Made by a program: the position numbers and the translations under genes. Positions 646 through 47,788 of a stretch of DNA of 64,000 nucleotides are shown here, one piece after another. The DNA is from Xanthostigma xanthostigma (lineage: Eukaryota; Arthropoda; Insecta; Raphidioptera; Raphidiidae), in the NCBI GenBank assembly GCA_963575645.1, contig OY754469.1:23144001-23208000 (forward strand), read 5' to 3'. Each line of letters opens with the position of its first letter. Within the stretch, counting starts at the first letter, position 1. The notes under the pieces are model-generated. The model was given only the letters and a program-made list of their open reading frames with translations, was not told the DNA's origin and did no database searches.

Positions 646-861
646 TTAGGCAGATAGAGAGAGAAAGACACAGAGAGAGACAGAATACGGTACCCATTGT
701 AGGAGACCCTGGGGTTTAGCTGGAGCCGGTTGCGCGGATCCAGTGGGAGCTAGCGTGTTGGTGTGGGAGCTAGTTGCAGTCAGTCCAAGGCCAAGCGTCT
801 CAGTTCCGGCGACCAGCCGATATGCAGTACCGACAGCACGAGCCGCTCTGTCTGCTGTACT
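646..861 (-). CDS. Terminal exon E of the D-type isoform (71 residues)
   Basis: A GC- and CpG-rich island in AT-rich DNA. After a possible acceptor GACTGGCAG|AGTACA (AG at 863-862) the frame encodes STADRAARAVGTAYRLVAG, then TETLGLGLTATSS, a Pro/Ala-rich stretch, and ends at TAA 648-646. Placed after exon D it gives FLFDIIR|STADRAARAV, a continuous amphipathic helix, with phase 0 on both sides. Joined to the constant exons and D, the product would be 240 residues. The polypyrimidine tract before the acceptor is poor. The last dozen codons read through a TC-rich simple repeat (SVSLCVFLSLSA), so the true C-terminus may differ; a donor at TGG|GTACCG is a weak alternative. The other strand has a possible promoter and could make this an untranslated exon instead. 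Confidence 0.52.
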   Translation of the reverse strand, partial: STADRAARAVGTAYRLVAGTETLGLGLTATSSHTNTLAPTGSAQPAPAKPQGLLQWVPYSVSLCVFLSLSA

Positions 862-9736: not shown

Positions 9737-10027
9737 CCTAATGATATCGAAGAGGAAGTTTCCTGAACCACCAGCCGAGCCACTAGCATCACCACCGACA
9801 CCAAAAGAAAGGAATCTCTTGTTACGATTCTCGTCATCATCTTCGACGTTGTCGAGGTCCTCTTCTGGATCAGGCCCATTTCCGCCTGAAGCGGCAGCTT
9901 CCTGATCATGGTCGTCCTGCTGATCATCAGCGGCTGCTGAGTTATCAGGACGCACCCTTACCTCGTTGTGCTGGCTTTCGGCTCCAGACAAAGCATTGTC
10001 TTCGTTGTCGACAGTTGTCTGCAGTTG
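9737..10027 (-). CDS. Alternative internal exon D (acidic propeptide, RNKR site, Gly-rich)
   Basis: This exon has 291 bases, 97 codons, phase 0 to phase 0, between acceptor ACTATTTGCAG|CAACTG (AG at 10029-10028) and donor AGG|GTAAGT (9737/9736). It starts QLQTTVDNEDNALSG and becomes strongly acidic (DDQQDDHDQE, PDPEEDLDNVEDDDE). It has an RNKR site followed by FLSFGVGGDASGSAGGSG and NFLFDIIR. The order acidic spacer, convertase-type site, glycine-rich segment, hydrophobic helix is that of a secreted precursor. Unlike A-C it is not terminal. The best continuation is exon E near 860, 8.9 kb downstream. It shares phase and direction with the constant exon, so I assign it to the same gene; it could belong to a separate gene whose first exon I have missed. 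Confidence 0.66.
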
Positions 10028-11716
10028 CTGCAAATAGTCATGTCACATTATAGTATTATACATTACTGATGGTGCGTTTTGTCACACCTTTGGATTATTT
10101 CTTAAATGTTTATACTCTTGTCATTTCTATAACCTTTGTTTTTTTAGAAAGAAAAACGTTTTCATGTATTGAACTTCTGCGAAATAATATTCCCAAAAAA
10201 GTTTAAAAACTCAGAAAACAAAGATTATTTTACTACCGATCCAAATCTTGGAACTAACTGATACTATATTATTAACTCTAATTAGATACTGCCATCAAAA
10301 TCAAATAAACATATACAAAGGAAGACTATCGGCATAGTTCAGTAATTGACAAATTCTCATGGACATTGTGGTCTATGATTTATTTTTAAGGCGAAGAGTT
10401 ATCAATTTATAATTTTTAAAAATAAATTGGAAACCCAATTGGCAATATCTCCAGTTTTCAAATTAAAACCGGGAAACTCAATATTTGAAATTACCAGTTA
10501 TGGAAACGCTATAGAAACTATGAAATTTCTATATGCTCGGATATTCTTGCATACAGAATAAACAATTAAAATAAAAAGCAAATCACTATTGCAATCTGAA
10601 AATAATATCTTCTTAGATGTCAGAATCAAATACTTTACAATTTAATATAACCTTCCTTTGTATCGAGCCTGCTTATCAAAAGAAAATATAATAATATAGT
10701 ATTTACCCTCTATAGTCAAATCAATGTCTAAATTAATTATTAATTATTAATTTTTTTAAATTAGTTTCGTAAGAAAACAAGCTTTTAAGACATTCTCGTT
10801 ACATACAACTAAGATCTTAAAGGGAATAATTAAGGGTTAAAGTTTAAAAAATAACAATTATTAAACACAACTACAGATTACATCTAGATGGATGTTGATA
10901 AAAGGTGCAATTATTTTAATTTTCATGATGCGATATGCTTTGATGCTTTATGATTTCATGACTGCAGTGCACACTGAAAACAAATTGTTAGTCAAAGCTT
11001 ATAACCTGAAAAAATTAGCTGAAAAAATGGAAAACAAAAACGCTACAAAAAATAAAATTCCTTAACCAAAACAAAAATGATTTCTAACAAATAAATGAAA
11101 ACTAAACGACAAAAATGAAAGAATACGATCAGTGGTACTGTATTTCCACTTAAAATATGCATCGAAACAACGAGTCCCATATAAGTCCAGCTTATGGGAT
11201 AACATGGATGACATGAAGATTATAAAACGAAAAACAAAATATGTTAAAACAAAAATCTCCTGCAATTGTTTAGTGGCAGGATCGACAACACAATGAATGA
11301 AAAACATTAGATACGTTCAGGATATGGAATGACGATTAGACAACACAACGAAACAAACAACGGATGTTAAAAACACTTCTCTGCTCCAGATGAATTTTTT
11401 GTCGTCTCAAAGTTATGTAAATGTGAATGTTGGTAATATGTGTAATGTCTGACTGAATTTTGATTTTTTCAAATTTGGAAAATACAACATGCGTTACCAG
11501 TTTGATATTTTAAAATTTGGAAAATAAATTTTGATAAACCTAAAAAATTAGAACATGCATGATTTATTTTCTAAGCGTACCTACTTTATGTTAATTTGAA
11601 AGTACCTATTACTACAAAAATAGAACATTTTAGAAGAATTTATTTTTAATAATTTTGAAAAACGCATGTTTTGACCATTAAAATTTTTAACAAAAAACAA
11701 TTTTTAATAAACCAAT
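10028..11716. other. Intron sequence between exons C and D
   Basis: About 1.7 kb of AT-rich DNA. I see no repeat pair, hairpin or protein-like frame. The 81-codon minus-strand frame near 11062-11307 has no splice sites and a random-looking composition. Confidence 0.5.
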
Positions 11717-12169
11717 TCAAAATTCAAAATCCGTATTAGATGAAACGAAATGCGTGACATGGCGACAAAAACCGCGAAACGGATTATTCTTTACCGCAGC
11801 GTAAACATCACGCCTTCTTCTAGATGTTGTGTTTGTCACGCTTTGTACAACTGTCGATTCGCCAACCTCGTTGTCTGAGGTTGACGTTGTGTTAGACACC
11901 ACATTGCTACTTCCGCTCGACGCGCTATCTGCGTCATCGTCGTCATCATCATCGCCTTCTAGATCTGGAGGATATGTCGGCAACGTAATGCTAACTCTAC
12001 TTCCGCTGCTTCCACTACTGGTTCCGGACGACACGGTGCCAGAGGAGCCGCTGCTACTACCGCTGCTGCTGCCACCGCCGCCGCCTCCAAACAAACCGCC
12101 GCTCAGAATTTGACGGCTAATTATCCGGAATAGATACGCCACTATCTCTTGAACTATCATATCGACTTT
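11717..12169 (-). CDS. Alternative last exon C (150 residues, Gly/Ser-rich, acidic, RRRR site)
   Basis: An acceptor AATTTCTAG|AAAGTC (AG at 12171-12170) opens 150 codons ending at a stop at 11717. It begins KVDMIVQEIVAYLFRIISRQ then ILSGGLFGGG, related to exons A and B. A Gly then Ser/Gly low-complexity tract follows, then ITLPTYPPDLEG, an acidic run of seven D, a Ser/Asn/Thr region, and a tetrabasic RRRR before DVYAAVKNNPFRGFCRHVTHF. RRRR fits a furin-like site, so a C-terminal peptide of about 34 residues could be released. With the constant exons the product would be 222 residues. An ATTAAA poly(A)-signal variant lies about 10 bases after the stop. The opposite strand is also open here, but only as a low-complexity shadow of S, P and L runs. 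Confidence 0.68.
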   Translation of the reverse strand, partial: KVDMIVQEIVAYLFRIISRQILSGGLFGGGGGGSSSGSSSGSSGTVSSGTSSGSSGSRVSITLPTYPPDLEGDDDDDDDADSASSGSSNVVSNTTSTSDNEVGESTVVQSVTNTTSRRRRDVYAAVKNNPFRGFCRHVTHFVSSNTDFEF

Positions 12170-14053
12170 CTAGAAATTATTTACATACAAGCAGCTGTAA
12201 TAAATTATATGTACAAAATCCTGAAAAAAAAACATATGCCCAAAAACGAGTGCAGAAAAACATAATCATGTGCATGTGAACTGTTCAGTCTAGTGATGTA
12301 ATATTTTTCTTTTCATAGCCTATATTATCAATTCATAGTTTTCATTAATTGTTGTTTTTAAGTAATTAAATAACTTGAAAATTTAATTGATAGATATGTC
12401 ACTAGTTCCCGAATTACAACTTGAGAACTGTAGAAAATTCTGATCTTTAGAAGTTCTTAAGCCAGTATAATGTAAATTAAAAAAACTACTTTATTTTCCC
12501 ACTGCATTGAGATACAGAATAGTGAATAATAATTTATGCGAAATGTATTTACAGTGATTTTGGTCTATAAATTTTGTAAAAATCTTTTATTTAAAACATT
12601 TTGTCTCTCAATTTTTTTTTTGACAATAGAATTATTAGGATACAAATATAGTGTAGCGACAGTGAAGAGTCCAACGACGAGTCTTGATTTATCACACATG
12701 ACTCTTTATTGGGAGCTGATTCTGTACGCTCCGCTCACGCTCAGTCGTTCAAAGGAGCGATACTAGTGTGCAGACTGCAGAGGAGTGAACTGTCATCATG
12801 CATGCTCAAGAGTCACGTAGCATTGCACAGCACAATACACACACTCAGCTCTGAGCTCATTTTAATATGATTCTGCTCTTATATTATTCGCCTTTCGGAT
12901 AAAGTATAATAAAAGCTGAACAATAATAACGTTTATTGTTATAATATTATATCTTTGTCAACGACGTCAATGTGAATGGTTTAAGTCACTGTAAGCTTAG
13001 CACTATTACACTTACAGTGTGTCATTCAACATTAAATGACTCAGCAAAGATAACTCCGTACGTGCAAAATTCACTAGTGCCTCTGTGGCCTGTGCTGTGT
13101 GCGCTCTGTAAATGTGCGAAAGCAACAGTACAGAACAGCTCAGCACAGAGCAATGGCGCTCAGAGTGAGTCATTCACAAAAAAAGAGCGACTAGCTCCGC
13201 TCCGAGAAAGGAGTCGTTCATTATGAACGACTAGCTCAGGAGCGACACGTCACTATCAAGTATGCTAGTGTCTTCAATATATTGACGAGTTACAACACAT
13301 CGTCGCTGCATTATATTTGTACCTTTGATAAAAATGATAAGAAGTGAAATTTGGTTGGTGATAACAATATATTTTTTTGCTGTTTGCTAAGAGAAATTAT
13401 ATCTGGTGAATTATTTTCTAAACAGATAGTAATGATGAAAATATTTTTCAGAAACGTCTAGTAAAACAAAGATGTGAGTAACTCGGGACTCACGAGAGTT
13501 CATGTGTAAACATGTGAGCTTATATGGGGTCATTTGGAAAAATTAACCCTGGTAGTTATGGAAACATTAAGGCATTAGATGAAATCTTTTCACTTAAAAT
13601 GCATCAATTGTTTTCCATAAGTAGTAGATAACAAAACGCACATGATTTAACCCCTAATAGGCCGAAAAACTGAAATAATTGTATAACATGAATTTATCTC
13701 ATTACCTTTTCAACCTTGGACTATAATTTCAATGATTATGTTAAGTGGTTTTCTAATACTGAAGATGTTTGTTTTTAAAATGGTTAATTACCAATTCAAA
13801 TAGCTATCTGAAATTAAAAAGTGCGTGTGCAATGTAATAAGAAAAAACTGTGAAAAAAACGTGTTCATTCATCGCAGTAAAATGCATGTTATTATTGTGT
13901 ATCTAATATTCTAATAACTCAACAGAAGGTTACAGTTAAAATGAATAAAATTTAAGCAAATAATGTAGTTAAATAAGCTTCCCTTTAAACACACCGTGAA
14001 TTATTTCACAATTCCATATAAAAAAAAAACACAACACTCTTCATTCTTATATT
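12170..14053. other. Intron sequence between exons B and C
   Basis: It contains a CpG-rich block at 12650-13256, probably a mobile-element relic. The rest (12170-12649 and 13257-14053) is AT-rich and unremarkable. The 3' untranslated region of exon B would begin at 14053; only AATATA-type signal variants are seen. Confidence 0.45.
12650..13256. mobile_element. CpG-rich relic with palindromic end, probably a DNA transposon
   Basis: A block with many GAGCG, CGCTC and AGTCGTTCA motifs in otherwise AT-rich intron. Left end TAGTGTAGCGACAGTG and right end, read from the other strand, TAGTGACGTGTCGCTCC share a TAGTG start. Near the right end is a perfect 21-base palindrome (13212-13232, arms AGTCGTTCAT / ATGAACGACT), and AGTCGTTCA recurs near the left end at 12739. 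No exact duplication flanks it. hAT-like ends are a guess. Confidence 0.33.
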
Positions 14054-15157
14054 TCATATAAAATTTACCACTATTTGATAAAGCGCTTCTTTAGTAAAAT
14101 CATTGATTGTAAATAAGAGCTCTTCGTTGGATTCTTCATCGGTTTCAATAAAGTCACTGCTGCTAACGTCTCTTTTTTGGACGTTTCTTGCGTCTATATT
14201 TAGTATATAATTCAATATAACACTGGCATCCATCATATTACGTATAGTATGTACTACAGTTGTATTTTCTGTACTTGAACCCGCTTCATCTCCATCCAAA
14301 ACTAAGGTAATGTTACCATATTTATTGATTAAATCCATGCCAATTGGTGCCGATAATATACTTTCATCTGCGTCTTCAGGTTCAATTGGAAACACAAGAG
14401 GCTCCGTCATATCAAAGTTCAGCGCTTTTGTATCATTAAATAATTCCAATAATTTTGATACATTGACGTTTCCACATGGAAGTCGAACATGAAACTTTAA
14501 AGTTTTATTTTCAGTTGAAATATTATTGTTACCAGTTAAATTAAAAGTAACTGGATCTAAACTTAAGAAAACAGTTTCATTTCCTAAAGACAGTTCATCA
14601 ATTTTATTTTCTGTCTGATTTATGGTTTTATTATTGATCAAATCGGTATCGAAAATGTTGCCAGTTAAAGAATAATTGATATGCTTATGTTTTCCAATGT
14701 TAATTTGGTTATTGACTACAATTATAATTGACTCATTTCCAATACCGATTTTATGAAGGGTCTGATGATTTTTTCTCTTATTACGAGGAATTTTGATATT
14801 GTCGTTACTGGTATTATTAGTGGGCAATAAAATTCCATTAGCATTTTGTCTAGCCTTTGATACTAAATTGTTTTCAGTTGAATTGCTATAGTCGGTCAAG
14901 TTGATTCTGTTGTTTCCAGTTTGATTGACTATATTAAAGTTTCTAGGTCGGTTGTTGTAGTTGTTGTTGTTGCCGGGTCTTCTTCTGATTGGCTGCGTTT
15001 TGTTGACCGGTTCAATTGTAATTTTAGCACTGTTTCCTTGAATCGTCGTCCCGTTTGCTTCAACGGAAGTTCTTCCCAAAATTCCACCATTCAGAATTGC
15101 ATCGGCTGCTATACCCACAATATATTCAACTAATTCCTTGACTTTGTCGTCGACTTT
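14054..15157 (-). CDS. Alternative last exon B (367 residues, heavily N-glycosylated type)
   Basis: An acceptor ATTTGCCAG|AAAGTC (AG at 15159-15158) opens 367 codons and a TGA at 14056-14054. This is by far the longest open frame in an AT-rich window. It begins KVDDKVKELVEYIVGIAADA followed by ILNGG, matching the starts of exons A and C. The middle, about residues 20-280, is asparagine-rich and carries about 19 N-X-S/T sequons by my count, dense for any protein and consistent with the secreted prediction. Basic motifs occur at RNKRK and near the C-terminus at VQKR, followed by an acidic/serine stretch and FTKEALYQIVVNFI. With the constant exons the product would be 439 residues. A single cysteine is visible in the exon (LPCGNVNVS). 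The function is unknown. Confidence 0.68.
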   Translation of the reverse strand, partial: KVDDKVKELVEYIVGIAADAILNGGILGRTSVEANGTTIQGNSAKITIEPVNKTQPIRRRPGNNNNYNNRPRNFNIVNQTGNNRINLTDYSNSTENNLVSKARQNANGILLPTNNTSNDNIKIPRNKRKNHQTLHKIGIGNESIIIVVNNQINIGKHKHINYSLTGNIFDTDLINNKTINQTENKIDELSLGNETVFLSLDPVTFNLTGNNNISTENKTLKFHVRLPCGNVNVSKLLELFNDTKALNFDMTEPLVFPIEPEDADESILSAPIGMDLINKYGNITLVLDGDEAGSSTENTTVVHTIRNMMDASVILNYILNIDARNVQKRDVSSSDFIETDEESNEELLFTINDFTKEALYQIVVNFI

Positions 15158-15308
15158 CTGGCAAATTTCTGATTACGTTAAAATTATATATAAAACTAAC
15201 ACACGTGCGTCAAACAGAATAGTGAATAAATATTTTGTGCCGGTGCTTAACGCTAAACAAAACCCAAAATAAACCAAAACGTTTTCCTGCTTAACATTTT
15301 TTTTTTAA

Positions 15309-15662
15309 TTACTTTTCATCATTGATTATAATTGTATTGATTTTGTCCAAATCGGGCTGGGCTAGTTGAGTAAAAAGATCAATGTCAGTGTTGACTTGCG
15401 TTACAGAAACTGATCGATTATTTTTCATTTCGGTAGTTGTTTCAGTAGCAATTTCTATAGATGTCTCTATTGTTTGATTTGTAGTGTGTTCTATAATTGG
15501 CTTATTTGAATTGTCATTAGTGTTTTTGTTTTTATTATTGCTTGCTCGTTGGATACCTTGGTTGGCAGCTTGAGCAGATCTTCTGTCACCACCACCGAAT
15601 ATTTGGTCCGCGGCTACTTGCACCGCATACGTTATAATCTCTTTCAACCATTCGTCAATATC
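15309..15662 (-). CDS. Alternative last exon A (117 residues)
   Basis: An acceptor TTTGTTAG|GATATT (AG at 15664-15663) opens a frame of 117 codons and a stop at 15311-15309. It begins DIDEWLKEIITYAVQVAADQ followed by IFGGGDRR, an amphipathic helix-like block that aligns with the starts of exons B and C. The remainder is rich in N, T, Q, I and E: an asparagine-rich stretch (NNKNKNTNDNSN), then threonine/glutamate runs and a C-terminus ending INTIIINDEK. Joined to the constant exons the product would be 189 residues. There is no donor before the stop, and exon B starts only 151 bases further on, so A is best read as a terminal exon. No AATAAA is seen; an ATTAAA hexamer lies directly after the stop. 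Confidence 0.62.
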   Translation of the reverse strand, partial: DIDEWLKEIITYAVQVAADQIFGGGDRRSAQAANQGIQRASNNKNKNTNDNSNKPIIEHTTNQTIETSIEIATETTTEMKNNRSVSVTQVNTDIDLFTQLAQPDLDKINTIIINDEK

Positions 15663-16955
15663 CTAACAAATTATAATTGATTCGTTTTACTAACGACGCC
15701 TGCCATTTTTTTTATCAACTTGAACAACTGTATGGCCACGTCAATGCTTCAGTTCTTTTATAGTGCTGTGTAACTTTATCGGAAAACTGTACTATAGTGA
15801 TTTAAAAAAAAAATTATATACTATAGAAAAAATAACACAATGACTTATTATGTGTCTACCTACACACTGTTATATTTTGTTCATTGACATTTCATAAAAA
15901 AAACAAACGATATTTTACTTTCTGTTTTAATCCAACGTCATTTGTTACACCCTCGTGTGATCTAGAAACAAACTCGTTGCTCGCACCTTGGATTACCAAA
16001 TCAATTATAAATTGTTCAAATTAGCTATATAGATTTGAATCAATGATTCGATTTTAAATCGTTTTATTTATAGTATATGATTACTGGTTTACGCTTGATA
16101 GGTTTTTATCATTTGTTGGTTTATCATGATTTATTATGTTTTATTAAAATAATGGTTGTTAACTAAGAGAGATGAATCATTTTAACAAGATTTTTTTTAT
16201 GTCAATTACATTTTTTTAATTTAATCAAAAAAATAAAATCCACAAAGGAAAATGTATTAACTTTACAATTACTGCTTTCATTGAATACGTCACAAGTAAA
16301 CTCCTCCACTATGTCAGATCAATTTAATCAGAATTAATATCAATCGAGTGATAGCAAATCTGAACATTTTATAGTAGGTATACAGATGACTCAATCTGTA
16401 TGCATGTGTGTAACTGTAGTGTATTTATGTAGGTAACAGACTGACGCACGGTTTGCTGGTTGCGGTAAACGGTAAGTCGTTCGGATCAACTTGTTATCCG
16501 CCAAGCTGGGGTTCCATTTATGCCAAAAGTGAAAGTGGTATATCATATAAACATAGTTAATTCTGAGGCCAAACTCTTGAACAGACTCTATAGTAACCGA
16601 CTGATAATTGCTATCATGGTACCACACAGTGCATTCGCACCTTACCTATTGGAAGCTGGATTTATGTAGATTGATTTTCAGATTTCTTGAAATCCGATTG
16701 CAATTATATTTAAGTGTATATCGGTTTATTGGAGCAAATTGGGTTTAGAGCTGTTTTACTTTATTTCTGGTATATAACAGAACCAACGGTTTGGCGTAGT
16801 TTCCATTTAAAAATGGTCAATGTCAAATTACAATCTCAGAACTTATAAGAAATTCCGATTTCGCTAGATTGGAGTTTGTAGCTAACAATAACTTTTACGC
16901 CCTATGACATAGGATGATGATATTATAGATATTATATTCTAAAGCATTCCTTGTA

Positions 16956-17366
16956 CAGTAGAGTTTCCATAAGTTAAAGTTCAAAAGAAACGTTGGAAAA
17001 TTTTAGTTATCGAGTTTTTTACTTATGAAGAGTTGAAGTTAGAGAGATTTTGGAAGTTCAATTTTTAACTAAACGAGGTTCAACTGTTCTAATAAATTGC
17101 TAATAAATTTTGTATCTAGTTATTTATTCAATTTGATTCATATTTATTAAAAAACGAAAAAGTCAGTAATTTTTTTCTGACTCATTGATAATACTTTAAG
17201 TTATGGAGGTCACCATTTAAGTTATCGAGGGCAAACGCACAAAATATTTGTTTAAGTTACCGAGGTTCTGTGCTTCAAATATAATGGAGGTTTTAAGGAA
17301 TTCAAACATATTTTAAGTTACAGAGGTTTTTAACTTATCGAGGTTTAGTTTATCGAGGCTCTACTG
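16956..17366. mobile_element. Tigger/pogo-type MITE, TA target site
   Basis: It starts CAGTAGAGTTTCCATAAGTT and ends TTATCGAGGCTCTACTG, a terminal inverted repeat flanked by TA on both sides (16954-16955, 17367-17368), the Tc1/mariner-superfamily target. CAGTAGAG followed by TCGATAACT-like sequence is typical of Tigger/pogo ends. Near the right end, variants of AAGTTAYCGAGG recur about six times, possibly transposase-binding units. At 411 bp with no long frame it is nonautonomous. Confidence 0.7.
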
Positions 17367-17501
17367 TATTATACTCTATAATTTATACCATACAATAGAT
17401 AAACAAAATAAACGTCCAGTTCAGCGGTTTTCCATTCACGATTACAGAGAGGCGTGAAAAAAGACATTATTGATTAAGTGCCATTATATACGCGGCGCAC
17501 G

Positions 17502-17527
17502 CGTGTGTGTGTGTGAGAGAGAGAGAG
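17502..17527. repeat. Compound microsatellite (GT)n(GA)n
   Basis: A (GT) run passes directly into a (GA) run. Confidence 0.85.
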
Positions 17528-17821
17528 TATAGACGCTCGACGGCTTCAAATATTAGCGTCTATAATAACAATATTATTATTAACGTGCAAGGAACCAGAG
17601 AAAAATATTTACGTAAAATACAATTTTAATATAATCTGTCAAATATATAGGTACTTGCAATTTTTAATACTTAGTTGATGCTGGAGAAATCTATTCTGTG
17701 TACATACTACTGCTCTGTTTTTTTTTTTAATTTATGGTAAATTGCATACGCTTGATGACTGAGGTCATTAATGTCAATCGTAACATTAAATTAAAAATAC
17801 ATCACAAAACATTCATGAGGA

Positions 17822-17900
17822 CCGGAGGTGGGATTCGAACCTAGGGCAGTCTGACCCAAAGGTCAGCACACCAACCAATGCACTAATCTGTCTGCAACTA
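17822..17900 (-). repeat. tRNA-like fragment, possible SINE head
   Basis: Read on the minus strand it has a perfect pol III B box (GGTTCGAATCC at 17841-17831), an A-box-like TTAGTGCATTGG, and an anticodon-arm-like CTGACCTTTGGGTCAG. The T-arm pairs badly and the acceptor ends do not pair, so it is not a working tRNA gene. A tRNA pseudogene or the head of a tRNA-derived SINE fits best; no tail or second copy was found to decide. Confidence 0.5.
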
Positions 17901-18950
17901 CCCTGTTGTATTTTCTTGGTTGCATTATTCAATTTTCTTTGTCTAGGTGACATTTATTTTAAAACGAGTATTTACGATAACAATTTTATCATTTATTTTG
18001 ATATTGTGTGAAGAAATGCAAAAAACTGAAGGTTTTTATTAATGTACTGGATACGCATTTGATCAAGAGGTTACTGTAGCAATTCTTCATTTTTTCGCTA
18101 CATAGTTTTGCATAAATATATAACAGAATATAGCCTACGTATTATAAAAAAACATTTTACAATAGAACTGGACGTGACAATGAAATTTGAATGGCTACTT
18201 TTATTATTTTACGCAATTATACATAAAAATTTAAGCGAAAGTTCTTGTAACACAACGATAAAAAAGGAATCCATTTAAAAGATATGAATAATGACTTTTA
18301 TGTTTTTAAATATTTAAAAAGTTTGAGTAATTTTTTAATAATAATATTTAAACGTACAAAAACATTTTTAAACAAAATATATCATAATGCAATTGATATT
18401 TTCAATATCATTTTGTGTGTGACTATTATTAGTTCTGTTTAAACATTATCACTTTGTATTTAAATTTAAAATGCAGTCAAAATAATTATTTTATGTGTTA
18501 ACAAACGTAAAGGCTACAGGAATATCAATGCTATTCTTAAAAAAAAATTCGGTAAGACGTTTTTTCCTTTCACATTTAATTTACATATACCATGTTTTAA
18601 TTAATTGTAAAAAAATATCAATGACTAGAAAAAACAATGGCATGGTGCATATTTAATTAAAATTTTTAGATAATTACTCTAAAATTTAATAACTGATTAT
18701 GCGAAAAAAAAATCAAGTTTATCAAAGAAGGTTATTTGAACAATTTTATACAACAAATCATCATTATTGGTTTACAGATCAATGACATACTTCATTTGCA
18801 TTTTTGGACGTATTTCTTGACCATTCAATATCTAGGCCAGGGTTTAGGACAATGCAGATTACACTTAGGGCGAAATATTTCGGGTATTTACAGAATGAGT
18901 AAGAATTGTTTTCTGAGATAAAGAAAACTTATTAAAACTAATAAAAAAAA

Positions 18951-19252
18951 CCGGTCAACGAAGGGTTTCGTACTATCGTACAAGATATAACATTATGTAC
19001 TTTTTGCACGCATGACCAATACCATCGGAGATTTTTTTTAATTTGTAAGGCGGCCATTTTGAAAATCGCCATCTAGATTTTTCATTATTATTTGTTGTTC
19101 TAGCGGCAATAGAAATACACACTCTGTGAAAATTTCAACTCTCTACCTATTACGATTCTTGAGATACAGCCCGCTGATAGATAGACGGACAGCGGAGGCT
19201 TAGTAATACGGTCTCGTTGAGCACCCTTCGGGTATAGAGAACCCTAAAAAGC
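18951..19252 (+). repeat. Interspersed repeat ending in GAACCCTAAAAA
   Basis: It runs from CCGGTCAACGAAGGGTTTCG to GGGTATAGAGAACCCTAAAA. Similar blocks (start near CGAAGGGTTCCGTAC, an internal ATTCTTGAGATACAGCC line, and an end GGAACCCTAAAAA) are, from general knowledge, abundant in insect genomes, probably LINE- or SINE-derived. No coding capacity remains. The class is not settled here. Confidence 0.5.
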
Positions 19253-20136
19253 AAGTCAGGAAAACTCACAAACGGCTGCAAGTGAGAAAATTTACTTTAA
19301 GAATAATGTTGTTTCAGTTAGATTAGAACAATCTAGAGTTTTTAATAAACACATTGTAAAATGTAAATTATAGACGTTCGGCAACCTATACTCGCAGAAT
19401 TAAGAATGGAGTATTATAATTTCATTGGAATATTGTTTCTCAAAAGGATGTTGAAAAAAAAATTCACCCAAAGTATTAAATCTATTAACCTTGATTAAAG
19501 TGGACAATGATTGATAAATCATTTGATAACGATCAATAAATTAATGATATCAGTCTTTAATCCAGTTTTTAATCGAAAGTGTCAATTTATTTTATATTTA
19601 AATTTCGTGCATAGAAAGGTTGGCAGGTTTTATTCAAGAATTGCATTATTGTATGAATAAAGTCATTCACATTATGACCCTAATAATTGTGAGTTTGTTT
19701 TTGTTAACAAGATAATTAGTTTAGTGCATAATAGCATTAATGGGTCTTTATTTCATTAAGTATTTTTAAGGCCAATAAGAGGGCATTAAATACTATGTAT
19801 TTTAAGTAAGTAATTATCATAATTAATTTCAAAATCATTTCAAACGTTAATTGTATTTACATATCAGAGGTCAAAATTAAATTGTTTGAATGGTATAAAT
19901 TATTGCCAGGTCGATTTGTTCAATCAAATGTAACGATGACATTAAAAGTGGTTGTCATGGTCAAGAAAAGGGCATCTTGAAATCAGTAAATTGTGAAATA
20001 ATTAATGTTTATAGCTAAACATTTTAGTTAAAATAAACAAAATTGAGATAGTTAAAAGCGAATTATGATTAGAACAAATAAAGGAATATTTTGAATAATT
20101 GTTTTATGTAAGATCAAACAAAAACAGAAAATAATT

Positions 20137-20617
20137 AATATACAGGATGAGTTTTAGTTGATGCTTTTTTTTTACAGCGTGTAAAAATCAAATAGACGAG
20201 CAAATATTTCAAATAGTTTTTTTATCAAAACTCAAAAATAAGAGGGAAACAGCCTTTCGAAGTTTAAATAAATTTTATTAAATTTTCTTTAATTTTAAGG
20301 TCGGTCCTGGGGTTATATTATGTCACTATGGAAATAAGTTGTTATTATCTCTCAAAAACAGAACAATACACATGTCAGTTTCAAATAAGCACCAACATAC
20401 TTGATAATAACAACTTATTTCCATAGTGATATAATATAACCCCAGGACCGACCTCAAAATTAAAGAAAATTTAATAAAATTTATTTAAACTTCGAAAGGC
20501 TGTTTCTCTCTTATTTTTGAGTTTTGATAAAAAAACTATTTGAAATATTTGCTCGTCTATTTGATTTTTACACGCTGTAAAAAAACGCATCAACTTAAAA
20601 CTCACCCTGCATATAGG
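20137..20617. mobile_element. Foldback element with arms of about 214 bp
   Basis: The left arm (about 20137-20350) and right arm (about 20402-20617) are near-perfect inverted copies around a 51-base spacer. Outer ends read ATATACAGGATGAG and, from the other strand, ATATGCAGGGTGAG; inner ends meet at GTTGTTATTATC. Each arm contains GGTCGGTCCTGGGGTTATAT. The arms differ at only a few positions, so insertion is fairly recent or the arms are being homogenised. No frame inside. TSD unclear because flanks are AT repeats. Confidence 0.7.
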
Positions 20618-21037
20618 CACAAATTTGTATTTATAAAAACTTCATATTATGTTTTGCGCAACAGAAATACAGTATAAAACTTCGAATACACTTTTTAATT
20701 TTAAATCATCTATAGGTATGTGCAAACATGTGATATAGCGAAAACTATTTTGTTGTGTTCTTCGTCATAATTTTCCATAATAAATCTTATTTTGAATAAT
20801 TTGCCAAAAAAACGTAAGCCATACCGTTATTACGTTTTTAAGTTATCGACATTTTACAAATTTATACACCGCAGATTTTATAATTGAAAAAGTGTCGACA
20901 ACTGAACCACACTGCAACAAATAAACTAATAGTCAGAGATTGCAACGAGACGGTAAGACACTAACCTGTCTATATTTTGGACAGTTTCTATGAATCAAAT
21001 GTTACAATACTATTTAAGAACGAATAGTTTTTATTTT

Positions 21038-21207
21038 AAAATTATACAGGATACAAGGCTAAAATATTAAAACAATTTTTATTCACTAAAAATCTTTAGT
21101 AAGACCCTGAAGAAGACAAGAAATATTGTCGAAACGTTGACCAATAAATAATGTTTTAGTGAATGAAAATTGTTTCAATATTTTAGCCTTGTATCCCGTA
21201 TAATTTT
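21038..21207. mobile_element. Short hairpin element with CTGAAGA...CGAAACGTT loop
   Basis: Two 54-base arms (21038-21091 and 21154-21207) are inverted copies with about three mismatches; outer ends read AAAATTATACAGGATACAAG. The 62-base loop holds CTGAAGA (21107-21113), a pairing GACAA/TTGTC, then CGAAACGTTGACCAATAAA. A related loop motif sits in the hairpin at 60290-60398. See the finding on hammerhead-like motifs. Confidence 0.6.
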
Positions 21208-21837
21208 ATCATATCATAATATTAAGGTGTCTTATTTTATTTTGTTAACAAATAGTTTTCGGTATTTAATGTAATTTAGCTTTATACGGTAGTAAACACA
21301 AATTATATATTTAAAGATTAAATTAAGAAAATTGTAAAAAACTATTGGTATGTTTCTTGAAAACACGTAAACCGTAATGATGCGAGAAATCAGAATATGT
21401 TGCCTAAAGCAATTTGAATATCGATCAAGGTTATTGGTCAATCATTTTTAATTACAATGCGATAAGGTCTCTGGGTTTTAATAAATAGAAGATAATCTTT
21501 AAAGCAAATATGCCAACGTTGATCTAACTCAAAGATAATGAATTATTTTTTAATTGCCCTTAATGTTTCCGTTTGAAATTTTTTAGATCTATAGTTCAGT
21601 ACGTTGATATTACGCCCAATTTAGCTATAAAAAATGATGGTCAAATCAATGACTAATATAACGTGCATGGCACGATTATTTATTTTATTACCAATTTCAC
21701 TTTTATTTCTAAATGTTTTATACCTTATTTTATAAATCCGCGGCTTGGATCTCGTTATATCTGTACATTACAGCCTTTTCTAGCGATTTCGCTTTAATTA
21801 TGTTCGTAAATTAGTTCGCCTAAGTATTGGCTTGGAC

Positions 21838-22042
21838 AGGCTAGAAACACTGTTTGGAGTTCTGCTGGCCGGTAGGCTGGGTACGAAGTGCGAAATGACG
21901 TCACTGCGGGCTCGCCTGCTAGTTCACAAGATAGGTTTAAAATTAAAACAGGGGCTATTTTTCTTGCTAGGTCCTCTGCGTGTTCTGAGCAAGAACCAAC
22001 CAGGAAGCAGTATATATCTTGTCACGTGGGCGACTTGAACAA
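21838..22042 (+). repeat. CpG-rich dispersed repeat, copy 1 of 2
   Basis: It shares with 41806-42000 the blocks GGAGTTCTGCT, CCGGTAGGCTGGGTACGAAG, AATGACGTCACTG, ACAGGGGCTATTTT, GCAAGAACCAA and ATCTTGTCACGTGGGC. The open frame here (21832-22038) is disrupted in the other copy, so it is not a gene. Transposon relic; class unknown. Confidence 0.6.
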
Positions 22043-23187
22043 ATGCCCACAAACCAACATGGCGTAATTCTGCTCAGAATCAGACAACAGACACGTTTTG
22101 CTCTGTGTTTATATTTTAACTGTCACTGCGCGCGCACCAGATTTATTTACAAAACTAGCTTGACGATGTCTCGTGTGAAGCGAGCACATAGGTAACAGCA
22201 ATCAAGAAAACCAGCGCTATAAAACTAGTAGGCAAATCTAGCAAGGAATCTAGCAGCGTTTCTAACCTCGTGAGCAGCGGCCTTTAAACAGTACGTTATA
22301 TTTTAAATTAAGATATCACTAATTCCATAATAATTATTTTACTTTTCATTTGTTACAATTTTCCTTCAATATCTTGAAATATATTGGAAATGTTTATAAT
22401 TTTTTTAGTGGGGTTATGTTTTGTAATTTTGGTAGCACAAGGACGGAGTTATCACCAGTTAACGTCTTAAAGAAGGTTTACTGAAGGGCTTGTATATTCT
22501 GTTAAATATTCAACCTGCCTCCTATTAAAATTAAATAATTTTGTCTTGTCTTACGCAATTATTACATCAATTGTTCACATTGAAATATTTGGCTCATTAA
22601 CAAACAATTGAAAATAAGAAAAAATACTTAAAAAGTTGAATTTAATTACGTAATCGTAGTATTCCTCTATTTGATGCATATGGCAGGTTAAGTTCTATTG
22701 ACCTTGTTTTCTATTTAAATTAATTGGTGCAGTTAAGTCATTTATTTATGATTTGTTAATTTTTATTACTTAGATAAAAAGTTAGAATTATTGTACGCGT
22801 AAACATACACATTCCGTAGTCAGGAATTTGAATATAAAATGTTATATTAACGCGACAACATTCCAGGATAATTTTTAATGAAACGATAAAGAAGATTTAT
22901 TTAATTTAGCAACTATATGCCATACGAGGGTTTTGCAATAAATCTTTATGATGTACCTACCTACATTTTTGTAACTTAAACAATAGTATGTATGTTCATT
23001 AATACTTGTCAGTTATACACTACAATTGTTTCAACTAATTGGAGTTTTCTACAATTAAAGTTTTTTTACATGAATAAAAAAATGGAAACTTAAATTTTTT
23101 TTTAAAATGAATGGCGTAGAATTTATATCTACTAAGAAAAATATAAAAAAATATACGAGATATTATAATGTAATGTATTCATGCTTA

Positions 23188-23750
23188 GTGGTAACAGTGA
23201 ATAATTCATGTACCTACCCTAATAGATACGATCAAAAATACAACTCCAAATTTACTATCAAATGACAGTATACTTTTTTTACATTTTCGAAATCTCCATA
23301 TTTCTCTCTATACATTCATATAAAATTTTCATAAGGTTACATAAGAAAATATTCGAGAAAAACGTTATCGATTCATTAATTAAACCAGTATAAGTATGAA
23401 TTATTATTAATATTTACACATGTAATGTGTGTAGTGTTATGAAAAATAATTATTACTGTGTGTTTAATTAAAAAATAATTGATAACGTTTTTCTCGAATA
23501 CTTTCTTATGTAACCTCATGAAAATTTTACATGAATTTATAGTGAATGACATGGAGACTTCGAAAATGTACAAAAGTATATATATACTTTTTTACATTTT
23601 TGAAGTCTCACAACAAAAATGCATGTACACTTCCAGTTGAGTTTGAAGTACAAAAAAGCATACATCAGTAGATTCCGACTGTAAAATTCTAGTTGAACAA
23701 AAAACTTTTTTTGTATCTATTAGGACACAAGTATTATTCACTGTTACCAC
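23188..23750. mobile_element. Palindromic MITE with TA target site (563 bp)
   Basis: Ends read GTGGTAACAGTGAATAAT inverted on both sides, with CCTAATAGATAC repeated inside each end, and TA flanks at 23186-23187 and 23751-23752. A second inner pair of inverted segments (about 23260-23385 and 23470-23590, sharing CGAGAAAAACGTTATCGAT-like sequence) makes most of the element fold on itself. No transposase frame. TA target and TIRs suggest the Tc1/mariner superfamily. Confidence 0.65.
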
Positions 23751-24308
23751 TATCGGATAATACACTGTATCTCTGCAATTATATAGTCGTATACATGTGT
23801 TTTAAATAACAAGAAGTAGGTAACTGAACATATGACCAAAAATAATTGCAAAAATGAAACTGACAAAAAAAACTAATCAGCTAATTAGAACTAGGTAGTA
23901 ACTGGCAGACAAAATTGTGCAAGGCATTGACAAATAATTTGGTATTTAAATAAACTGAAGGTAAGACTATAATATTATAGTAAACCACTCGGTCAACTTT
24001 TGACTTTACACTTACATGTGAGTGACAATGAAGTTTTGACGCGAAATCACTTTTTGTAGTATCGAAAAATCTGTATATTATTCAAGGAAATATTGTTTAC
24101 TTTTCAAATTAGTGTACAGATGACAATTTTATAACACTTTTAAATATTCACTTTGTTAATTTGGTGCATACGAATTAAATTATTTTTTTACAGTCTAAAT
24201 AAATAACGTAACATATTTTAAATGGCTAAAAAGCGAACGATTGTAGTTTTTATTGCAGTTACGTATTATTTTCAATTTACTTCGAGGATTTAAATTTGCA
24301 TTTACAAA

Positions 24309-24383
24309 AATCAGTGCAATTTTTAAGAAAACAATAATGTGTCATCATTACACATTTTTGTTTTCTTAAAAATTGCATTGATT
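24309..24383. repeat. Compact 75-base hairpin, pre-miRNA-like
   Basis: Two 34-base arms (24309-24342 and 24350-24383) pair with one G:U and one mismatch around the 7-base loop CATCATT. It lies in the intron about 600 bases before the end of the constant exon's downstream side. Size and shape resemble a miRNA precursor, but a minimal foldback repeat is equally possible and AT content is high. Confidence 0.45.
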
Positions 24384-24909
24384 CTGTTTACTGATTCAAT
24401 TAGTGTCATTTTATTATGAAGGTCACCATAGTGTCGATTTTTTTATCAAGTTAAATTTTATAATAATAACGAATTTAACGTTTGTTTCGATATACGGTTT
24501 CTGTGTGGCTCAAATCCATTTGAAACAATCTGTAAGCATTTGAGACAGATATATTTGTTATATTTTTTTCTGCGCCCAAATGGGTACCAGGATATCATTA
24601 GCGCAAGGTATAAATTGATATAGGTACCTATATGGTTTTTGTCTCAATATATTGGTTACACTTTAAGAACAGAATACGCCATACAGAACTTCGTGAATAT
24701 TTTTTTGCATACTATGTTTGCGAATAGAGAACAGCTTCATCTTAAATTTAAAATAAATAACACATTTTCTGTGGGTTTGTGCACTTTATGACATCTTTTC
24801 TTGCAGAAGTGTCATTAACGACTCTTTGATACTCAGGACCATTTATCAGCTTTGCAACTCGTCAAAATACGTTTTAAATTTTTTTAAATTTAAAAAAATA
24901 AATTCATAC

Positions 24910-24996
24910 CTGAGATAAACCGGGGAATAACTGTCTAAGCACGCCTATCGTTCTTTTGTTTCTTTCTATAAGTTGTTGTTCCGTTTCCACTGTTTC
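24910..24996 (-). CDS. Constant internal exon with an RNKR cleavage site
   Basis: This exon has 87 bases, 29 codons, and is phase 0 at both ends. It lies between an acceptor (TTTGTTACAG) and a donor CAG|GTATGA at 24910/24909. It encodes ETVETEQQLIER, then NKR, then TIGVLRQLFPGLSQ. The RNKR tetrapeptide fits the R-X-(K/R)-R consensus of furin-like proprotein convertases, so the mature chain may begin at TIGVLRQLFPGLSQ, which is then joined to one of four C-terminal parts. It lies 22.6 kb downstream of the signal-peptide exon and 9.2 kb upstream of exon A. Being phase 0, it can splice to A, B, C or D without a frameshift. Cleavage is inferred from the motif only. Confidence 0.72.
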
Positions 24997-26875: not shown

Positions 26876-27330
26876 GGAACACTTTTATAGCATCCGATCC
26901 AGTATCCTCTTGTTTTGTACTAGCTTGCATAGATCGTCGACTGGTCGGTTGATATTGTCTTCTGCAGTCATTCTTGATTGTTCATATTTTACCTGCCTTC
27001 TGCGATCTAGAGCTTAACATTCGCGCAGGATAGAGTACGCTGTTTCTGTCTCCTTGCATTGTTTTTGTAGGTATCCTTTCAGGGCACAGTGCCCTGTTAG
27101 AAGGCCTACCACTAGTAGTTCTTAAGTCATCTTTCGGGATAGTCGTTTAGTGAAAGTTATGTTGTTGTCTGAAAATCTGGATGTTTTATGCTCATTTTTG
27201 ATGAACTCATTTATTTGACTTCGTTCTGTGTTTTTAGACAACTTATGAAGTTGACGATCTTTTACCAGTAAATTCATCTGCTTGTTCGTTGTCGTTGATT
27301 TCTGAGTGTCCCGGGATCCACAATAATGTT
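26876..27330 (-). pseudogene. LINE remnant: RNase H and C-terminal end (jockey/R1 type)
   Basis: Minus-strand translation gives WIPGHSEINDNEQADE (from 27320), matching the W(V/I)PGHS.I.GNE.AD signature of the RNase H domain in jockey/R1/I-type LINEs. A stop (TAA) breaks it soon after. Further on, LLTGHCALKGYLQKQCKET matches the C-terminal (L)LTGH block that normally precedes a CCHC-like motif; the expected paired cysteines are mostly lost. A last open stretch ends at RILDRML and a stop near 26885. Upstream (27340-27560) some frame may continue but is too decayed to assign. Clearly dead. Confidence 0.7.
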
Positions 27331-28251
27331 ACTTTAATTGCATGTAATATGGCCGCAATTATTTAAAAAGTATTGACTGATTTTTTTTATTTTTTCATCG
27401 AGATACTTAAATGGCTTCGGTAACACGGTAGTTAGCTCAGGTACGTACCATCATTGAACCTATTATTATACGCCAACGATGTAAGTTGTAGAGCAAAGAT
27501 TACTGATCTACAATAATCCAGTCTGAAACTATTGCACGACCTTCTCATAGTTTTTTACTAAGATGTCTGTAGATTATTTTTATGTCTACTAGGTTTATCA
27601 GTACATGTCTCAATTTATTATTTCCATTAAGTCCATTTGGTACTTTTACCAGTACTCATATTACAGTCTGGAAACTGAGGTTTAGTAATAGATGAATCAT
27701 GGGAACAATGGGAACTGTTAATATTTTCGCAGTTATCGTCAATGTTAGTTTTTAGTTTTAATTTTTTCATACGTTATCGATTTGTAGCTGTACTCTTTTA
27801 TGCATCGCATTGAGTTGTAGGTAAAAGTGTTATTTATTGCAATCAGTGTATTAACTACACCAGTGATTGGTTACACCATTTTTTTACAATTAAATGAGTG
27901 CACTAACAGTCGAGTGCAAAACTTTCTCAATTTAATACAGGTCGGTTAAACGTTTGCATGTACACTAGTCAATATTTAACAACCAGCTAAGGTTCACACT
28001 TCATCGATGAAAAACATGAAATTGTGAAGGATATTTTTATCTAGTTTTCGATACAAAGAAAGTATAATATATTTTCGTCGTGATTATAAAATATGTAAAT
28101 AATTCTCATATGCAATCAAATCTTCATCGGCAGACACAAAGATTTGTCATGTTAGGATAATTCTTTGACTTACTTCAGCTGCTTATGGTGCACCAAAATA
28201 TTGAAATCATATAATAAATTATTCAAGTACGCACATACATTTGGAAATATA

Positions 28252-40069: not shown

Positions 40070-40275
40070 CTGTCTCGAGGCCTTACATTTCGGAGAGATA
40101 AAAACTATTAAACTTATTATCAAAGAAATTTTGTTGGAAGAGCACTGGATTAAAAGTGTAATTGTACAAAAAACTATGCTTAATACATTCATACCTATAC
40201 ACAGTTAATAAAAAATATCGTTTCAATCGATCGATTATTTCTCGTCACAATCTAAGATCATTGTCAATGCTTTCT
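40070..40275 (+). repeat. Dispersed repeat, copy 2 of 2
   Basis: Same family as 30635-30860, same orientation. Open frames across it (40002-40371) are interrupted and differ from the first copy. Confidence 0.45.
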
Positions 40276-47636: not shown

Positions 47637-47788
47637 TTTATCGTTAATTGGTACGATTTCTACGACTTCAGCTTGGTCGAGGGTGGCGGGATACGACCTA
47701 CAGCTCCCTAATATAGTGAACATAACTACAAAACAACAGGCGATGCTTAGGATACTGCAGCGCATTGTGATGGACTAGTATTGGTGAC
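47637..47788 (-). CDS. Start and signal-peptide exon of a secreted precursor (unrecognised family)
   Basis: An acceptor (TTTGTTTCCAG at 47800-47789, minus strand) is followed by 23 noncoding bases and an ATG at 47765. The 43 codons that follow begin MRCSILSIACCFVVMFTILG, a basic residue then a long hydrophobic run, and go on to SCRSYP, with likely signal cleavage near residues 22-24. The mature start contains VVEIVPINDK and ends exactly at a codon boundary before a good donor, AAA|GTAAGC (47637/47636). The exon is richer in G+C and CpG than its surroundings. The product should enter the secretory pathway. Exon phase (0) matches the constant exon at 24996-24910. The family is not recognised. 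The upstream untranslated exon near 58,740 is inferred; a closer alternative promoter cannot be excluded. Confidence 0.75.

What the first reader, a model, noticed from the sequence alone, without database searches (positions are those of the whole stretch)
9737..24996. Secreted-protein gene with a cluster of duplicated alternative last exons
Seen: three consecutive minus-strand exons each begin after an AG with related sequence: A DIDEWLKEIITYAVQVAADQ, B KVDDKVKELVEYIVGIAADA, C KVDMIVQEIVAYLFRIISRQ, all continuing I(F/L).GG and each with its own stop. The upstream constant exon and all variants meet at phase 0. Inferred: tandem duplication of a terminal exon, followed by extreme divergence of the tails (Asn/Thr-rich, Asn-glycan-rich, Gly/Ser/Asp-rich), giving one secreted N-terminus four possible C-terminal parts. 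I know of no described family with this layout.
Basis: partly seen in the sequence, partly recalled or inferred. Interest (0 to 1): 0.85.

Follow-up and report, generated by a model that had tools for sequence, protein, structure and literature searches.

The report
Insect gene with swappable tail exons
One insect gene for a secreted protein appears able to end in several different ways, because the start of its tail-coding exon was copied side by side and the copies drifted apart; arrangements of this kind are already known from a few other insect genes.

Summary
On the minus strand, exons A (15662-15312), B (15157-14057) and C (12169-11720) begin with homologous 25-residue heads. In leave-one-out scans of 114 kb in six frames each head is found first, far above noise. 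Each opens at an AG acceptor in phase 0 and ends in its own stop. The tails are codon-periodic, and B has 19 N-glycosylation sequons against 7.6 expected.

I extended the gene to a signal-peptide exon (47765-47637) and to downstream exons left of the window (F, G; E probable), so exon D is internal to a longer form. All predicted exons fit phase 0.

Best reading: a constant secreted N-terminus is spliced either to D-(E)-F-G or to one of three duplicated terminal exons. For A this is well supported. B and C each carry a mediocre in-frame donor near the end, so either could be an internal cassette.

No RNA evidence exists here, no other insect genome could be searched, and a competing-RNA-structure test was null. 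The layout is known (pip, PGRP-LC, CG42235, lola, mod(mdg4); duplicated exons in insect serpin-1). This is a new member of a known kind, in a gene I could not name.

The parts
47637..47765 (-). First coding exon with signal peptide, MRCSILSIACCFVVMFTILGSC..., ends INDK|gtaagc, phase 0; 5' UTR acceptor at 47788
   Evidence: (donor 98.2 percentile, UTR acceptor 99.9); codon score of this exon is negative (-4.3)
24910..24996 (-). Constant exon ETVETEQQLIERNKRTIGVLRQLFPGLSQ (RNKR dibasic site), phase 0-0
   Evidence: (acceptor 99.5, donor 99.4 percentile)
15309..15662 (-). Alternative terminal exon A: homologous head + Thr/Asn-rich tail, stop TAA 15311-15309, ATTAAA at the stop and GU-rich stretch downstream
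   Evidence: (no usable phase-0 donor in tail)
14054..15157 (-). Alternative exon B: homologous head + 340-residue Asn-rich tail; 19 N-X-S/T sequons in the exon; stop TGA 14056-14054; AATATA and GU-rich stretch follow; in-frame donor at 14069
11717..12169 (-). Alternative exon C: homologous head + Gly/Ser/Asp-rich tail, RRRRDV dibasic site, stop TGA 11719-11717; in-frame donor at 11795
9737..10027 (-). Exon D of the long form, internal: acidic stretch, RNKR site, FLSFGVGGDASGSAGGSGNFLFDIIR|gtaagt, phase 0-0
   Evidence: (donor 99.8 percentile)
694..861 (-). Probable exon E of the long form, STADRAARAVGTAYRLVAGTETLGLG..., phase 0-0, weak donor (86 percentile). (Exons F and G follow outside the window at C6:23139413-23139255 and C6:23138569-23138507, L002 5413-5255 and 4569-4507.)
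   Evidence: F and G:

Best explanation
This is one insect gene for a secreted proprotein. Its constant N-terminus (signal peptide, short pro-region, RNKR site, TIGVLRQLFPGLSQ) is spliced in phase 0 either to the long form D-(E)-F-G or to one of three tandemly duplicated exons A, B or C. Each of those begins with a probable amphipathic helix of common origin and then carries its own tail and stop. Shown from sequence: homology of the heads, phase, open frames, downstream exons. Inferred: that choice among weak acceptors (with cleavage and polyadenylation at the chosen exon) decides which extracellular module is made: a short Thr/Asn-rich tail (A), a heavily N-glycosylated tail (B), a Gly/Ser/Asp-rich tail (C), or the long form.
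For: Leave-one-out head detection, rank 1 in 3 of 3 tests. Phase-0 junctions; coding parts of all nine exons are multiples of three. Tail periodicity above 70 of 70 background ORFs; B has 19 sequons, reached by 0 of 5000 shuffles. A and B lack any early Met; A and C open exactly at the acceptor TAG. In 114 kb the six best phase-0 AG..GT candidates on the minus strand are exons of this gene (codon table trained on them, so partly circular; B and C appear there cut at their in-frame donors). A and B have a PAS-like hexamer at the stop plus a GU-rich stretch, a combination seen at 1.5% of 15,491 background stops. Of two signal-peptide-like starts with a GTRAG donor on this strand, 47765 ends in phase 0 and fits; the other, 40192, ends in phase 1 and does not fit the constant exon. 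Acceptors of A, B, C, D score at the 79th, 82nd, 59th and 90th percentile against 99.5 for the constant exon. The parts searched (A, first 101 residues of B, constant exon, C head, E, F, G) occur once in the genome; SP and D were not searched.
Against: No transcript evidence. B and C have mediocre phase-0 donors near their ends. C's downstream element fails the GU-rich test, and AATATA was added to the hexamer list after seeing B. Weak acceptors are not special to A-C: predicted E (89) and F (85 percentile) are similar, and a weak acceptor is also what an unused site looks like. No docking/selector pairing found: 2 of 36 region pairs at z below -2, none below -3. Tail comparisons are at or near shuffle level, so homology covers only about 25-30 residues. 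Splice percentiles rest on generic matrices written from general knowledge. The signal-peptide exon has a negative codon score (-4.3).
Confidence: 0.7

Rival explanations
1. B and/or C are internal symmetric cassettes: the phase-0 donor near their end (B 14069, C 11795) joins them in frame to D, so they insert a module in the long form instead of ending the protein; only A is terminal.
For: The best donor of B lies 4 codons before its stop and the best donor of C 25 codons before its stop, both phase 0 (96 and 97 percentile). Such a donor occurs in the last 5 codons of 0.9% of 10,696 background open ends, and in the last 26 codons of 5.8% of 2,515. Codon score of C drops after that donor (-7.4 for the last 25 codons). 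Constant, D, E and F are all symmetric phase 0-0, and the predicted donors of E and F are weaker still (86 and 82 percentile).
Against: Neither donor has G at +5. B also has AATATA and a GU-rich stretch directly at its stop. A, the sister exon, has no such donor. The low codon score is no proof: stretches inside B score as low.
Confidence: 0.2
2. The variable exons have their own promoters and are joined to the constant part by trans-splicing, as at lola and mod(mdg4).
For: Known for insect loci with one constant part and many 3' exons (passages).
Against: Nothing in this sequence points to it; all exons lie on one strand in order, which cis-splicing explains. Promoters were not tested.
Confidence: 0.06
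3. A, B and C are separate small genes or decayed exons, the shared heads being a relic.
For: C has a Met at codon 4; acceptors are weak.
Against: A and B have no early Met, and no signal-peptide-like start with a GTRAG donor was listed between 15.7 and 24.9 kb. Frames are intact over 117, 367 and 150 codons with codon periodicity, and B is enriched in sequons.
Confidence: 0.04

Closest known systems
Drosophila pip, PGRP-LC and CG42235 (mutually exclusive 3' variable exons)
   Same: [quoted passage not shown] PGRP-LC and CG42235: mutually exclusive 3' variable regions (PMC9013439: passages, and sections 6 and 7 read).
   Different: The paper treats pip's under UTRs; here the variable exons are coding. 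Only the first 25-30 codons are homologous, lengths differ (351, 1101, 450 nt), the array sits in front of a further internal exon, and no competing RNA pairing was detected.
Insect serpin-1 genes (Pteromalus puparum PpSerpin-1; serpin of Chrysoperla carnea)
   Same: A secreted insect protein diversified by exon duplications and alternative splicing (PMC12758981, passages; that the duplicated serpin-1 exon codes for the C-terminal part is recalled).
   Different: No serpin or other Pfam family above cut-off here; the duplicated unit is only a short head fused to unrelated tails.
lola and mod(mdg4)
   Same: Constant 5' exons joined to one of many variable 3' exons (PMC3228551 and PMC12692577, passages).
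   Different: Those are described with trans-splicing (that they are BTB and zinc-finger nuclear proteins is recalled). No Pfam family above cut-off was found here and the protein has a signal peptide.
Dscam-type internal mutually exclusive exons
   Same: Tandem duplicated exons with one phase (Dscam details recalled).
   Different: A has its own stop and no usable phase-0 donor in its tail, so at least A is unlikely to be an internal cassette.
A conserved insect secreted-protein family (recalled, unnamed) containing the motif TRLFVIANRGISNLVQDLIL...VNFKARLITSLI
   Same: I looked for such a motif from memory and found it as two in-phase exons 14-15 kb downstream of D, outside the window.
   Different: No Pfam model, no text hit in the paper library and no insect protein collection here, so membership and whether A, B, C exist in relatives are unknown.

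Membership tests
Tandem duplicated alternative terminal exons (pip / PGRP-LC kind) | Variable exons homologous to each other | tested here: met
   leave-one-out rank 1 in 3 of 3; heads only
Tandem duplicated alternative terminal exons (pip / PGRP-LC kind) | Common phase with one constant upstream exon | tested here: met
   all phase 0
Tandem duplicated alternative terminal exons (pip / PGRP-LC kind) | Each variable exon has its own stop and 3' end | tested here: inconclusive
   stop in all three; PAS-like site with GU-rich stretch for A and B, hexamer only for C; in-frame donors in B and C
Tandem duplicated alternative terminal exons (pip / PGRP-LC kind) | Competing RNA pairing between constant-exon intron and variable exons | tested here: inconclusive
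   2 of 36 pairs at z < -2, about as by chance; no relatives to test conservation
Tandem duplicated alternative terminal exons (pip / PGRP-LC kind) | One variable exon per mature transcript | not testable with these tools
   no RNA reads available
WebScipio-type mutually exclusive exons | Similar exon length (default difference up to 20 aa), frame and homology | tested here: not met
   117, 367 and 150 codons
lola / mod(mdg4) loci | Trans-splicing from separate promoters | not testable with these tools
   no reads; no Pfam family above cut-off
Dscam-type internal mutually exclusive exons | Functional donor in phase with the next constant exon | tested here: inconclusive
   not met for A, candidate donors in B and C
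Insect serpin-1 | Serpin domain | tested here: not met
   no serpin family listed
Recalled insect family with LFVIANRG...VNFKARL motif | Motif in final exons | tested here: met
   the family itself rests on recall

The most novel reading that the evidence does not exclude
One secreted-protein gene works as a delivery chassis. A fixed signal peptide, pro-region and short peptide are followed by an amphipathic helix present in three duplicated copies, each fused to an unrelated extracellular tail (Thr/Asn-rich, densely N-glycosylated, Gly/Ser/Asp-rich). The head is kept under constraint while the tails are free to turn over. B may be a hybrid exon that can either end the protein or be passed through to D, giving up to five or more secreted products from one promoter.
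Probability: 0.35. Interest if true: 0.55.

Novelty: new member of a known kind. Interest (0 to 1): 0.4.

Why it matters
If used, these exons show a secreted protein diversifying by duplicating only the start of a terminal exon and letting the rest diverge. Searches that require similar exon length (as in PMC3228551) would miss such arrays, so they may be undercounted (inference). It also gives a compact case for asking how an insect selects among weak acceptors for terminal exons.

Tried and rejected
Pfam scans of A, B, C, constant+C head, constant+D, E, SP and of SP-constant-D-F-G (without E): no family above its cut-off; weak sub-threshold hits only (best for A: Rpp20, 16.7 bits against 24.6). 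AlphaFold of exon B alone: mean pLDDT 30; a helix 4-24 in the head and some other elements, only 8 residues of 367 at pLDDT 50 or more; too poor for a fold search, so none was run. Relatives of exon F in prokaryote and viral contigs: none. Motif letters in papers: 0 papers. Docking/selector RNA pairing: null. A shared 22-nt stretch upstream of B (15214-15235) and C (12514-12535, 91%) is no better than other chance repeats of the region. Tail-to-tail homology: 0.486, 0.03 and 0.082 of 500 shuffles (A/B, A/C, B/C), not accepted. Hydrophobic moment of the heads: 0.08, 0.04, 0.06 of shuffles reach it, so only suggestive. D as a fourth terminal exon: rejected, it has a 99.8-percentile donor and downstream exons. 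A second signal-peptide-like start at 40192: rejected for this gene because its donor leaves phase 1. Paper searches, listings seen: 20 of 35 papers; 20 of 76; 5 of 5; 12 of 43; 0 found; 4 of 4; 10 of 15. No listed title or abstract start describes this gene as far as I can tell, but it has no name to search by and only open-access papers are held.

Full report
What is there. The window is part of a 50.9-Mb contig of a 623-Mb genome. The genome is almost certainly an insect's: 78 matches to the family 7tm_6 (recalled as insect odorant receptors), against none in 14 control genomes, which the answer does not name. On the minus strand the constant exon 24996-24910 (ETVETEQQLIERNKRTIGVLRQLFPGLSQ) has a strong acceptor and donor (99.5 and 99.4 percentile among all AG or GT of the strand, by generic matrices written from general knowledge). 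A (15662), B (15157) and C (12169) begin after AG, in phase 0, and run 117, 367 and 150 codons to their own stops; D starts at 10027.

Is it more than chance? The 25-residue heads match without gaps with 11, 8 and 12 identities (A/B, A/C, B/C). None of 20,000 shuffles reaches any of the three scores. Profiles of two heads find the third first in all six frames of 114 kb (53.5, 57 and 48.5 for A, B and C; best other 19.5), and no fourth copy is found there. Position-specific composition of each tail exceeds all 70 background ORFs of 80 aa or more. B holds 19 N-X-S/T sequons against 7.64 (sd 2.37) in shuffles, 0 of 5000 reaching 19; A and C are not enriched (2 each). A and C open exactly at the TAG of their acceptor, B five codons after a stop. 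The first Met is at codon 79 in A, 250 in B and 4 in C, so A and B need an upstream exon.

The whole gene. A signal-peptide exon lies at 47765-47637 and ends in phase 0; its codon score is slightly negative. A second signal-peptide-like start, at 40192, has a donor in phase 1 and does not fit the constant exon. Further exons between 47637 and 24996 are not excluded. D ends in a very strong donor (99.8 percentile) and is internal. I looked for a motif recalled from insect proteins and found it in two further exons left of the window, F and G, in phase 0 and ending in a stop (C6:23139413-23139255 and 23138569-23138507). A probable exon E lies at 861-694. Coding parts of SP, constant, D, E, F and G are 129, 87, 291, 168, 159 and 63 nt, all multiples of three. 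A scan of 114 kb for phase-0 AG..GT exons puts B, D, C, E, F and the constant exon in the first six places on the minus strand (B and C cut at their in-frame donors; A and G have no suitable donor and do not appear). The codon table was trained on these exons, but leave-one-out codon scores are positive for eight of the nine (all but SP, -4.3). A, the first 101 residues of B, the constant exon and C head, E, F and G occur once in the genome; weak other hits have E of 0.3 or worse. SP and D were not searched. These protein searches are not sensitive enough to find one head with another (the C-head query missed A and B), so distant paralogues elsewhere are not excluded.

How it most likely works. 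The acceptors of A, B, C and D score at the 79th, 82nd, 59th and 90th percentile, weaker than those of the constant exon (99.5) and G (99.6), but similar to predicted E (89) and F (85). I infer regulated choice: the constant exon joins either D and the long form or one of A, B, C, each ending transcript and protein. A and B have a poly(A)-signal-like hexamer at the stop and a GU-rich stretch behind it, a pair seen at 1.5% of 15,491 background stops. C has the hexamer (15% of background) but fails the GU-rich criterion; the predicted last exon G has no hexamer within 20 nt. AATATA was included after I had seen B, which weakens that number. The protein would be secreted, with RNKR sites in the constant exon and in D as candidate processing sites (read from sequence; processing not tested).

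What speaks against. B has a phase-0 donor 4 codons before its stop (96 percentile) and C one 25 codons before its stop (97 percentile). Donors of that strength occur at 0.9% and 5.8% of background open ends, so B and C may be internal cassettes joined to D. A has none. The pairing test modelled on the docking/selector idea gave 2 of 36 pairs at z below -2, none below -3: a null result. There are no reads, and no other insect genome could be searched.

Comparison. Tandem homologous mutually exclusive terminal exons are described for pip (under UTRs), and mutually exclusive 3' variable regions under competing RNA structures for PGRP-LC, with CG42235 and pip said to be similar (PMC9013439: passages, sections 6 and 7). 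lola, mod(mdg4) and CG42235 are listed as trans-spliced genes with variable terminal exons or exon groups; [quoted passage not shown] mod(mdg4): PMC12692577, passages). A secreted insect serpin with exon duplications and alternative splicing is described in PMC12758981 (passages). The layout is therefore known, also for secreted insect proteins. What is less usual here is that homology is limited to the head while tails differ threefold in length, in a protein without any Pfam family above cut-off.

Verdict. Observation confirmed; interpretation partly supported; new member of a known kind.

Noticed in passing
window 12700-13260: A dispersed repeat of about 560 nt sits between exons B and C. 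The genome search found 2297 candidates and scored 40; the other full or near-full copies listed are 87-94% identical.
   Followed up: partly
window 20167-20585: A palindromic MITE-like element (two 183-nt arms, 98% complementary) lies in the intron between the constant exon and A. The other scored genome copies are 99% identical (1132 candidates, 40 scored), which suggests recent activity.
   Followed up: partly
window 27243-27362 (-): Remnant of an RNase H domain, probably of a retroelement; Pfam E 1.6e-4 but below the curated cut-off.
   Followed up: no
window 23275-23575 and 21032-21213: Two further inverted-repeat pairs (99-nt arms 88%, 60-nt arms 92% complementary) in the same intron; perhaps other short mobile elements.
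   Followed up: no
window 15214-15235 and 12514-12535: A 22-nt stretch, 91% identical, stands 57 nt upstream of the B acceptor and 345 nt upstream of the C acceptor; no stronger than chance repeats of this region.
   Followed up: partly
window 40192-40087 (-): A second signal-peptide-like start with a GTAAGG donor in phase 1, inside the intron between the signal-peptide exon and the constant exon; probably chance, but an alternative first exon of something else is not excluded.
   Followed up: partly
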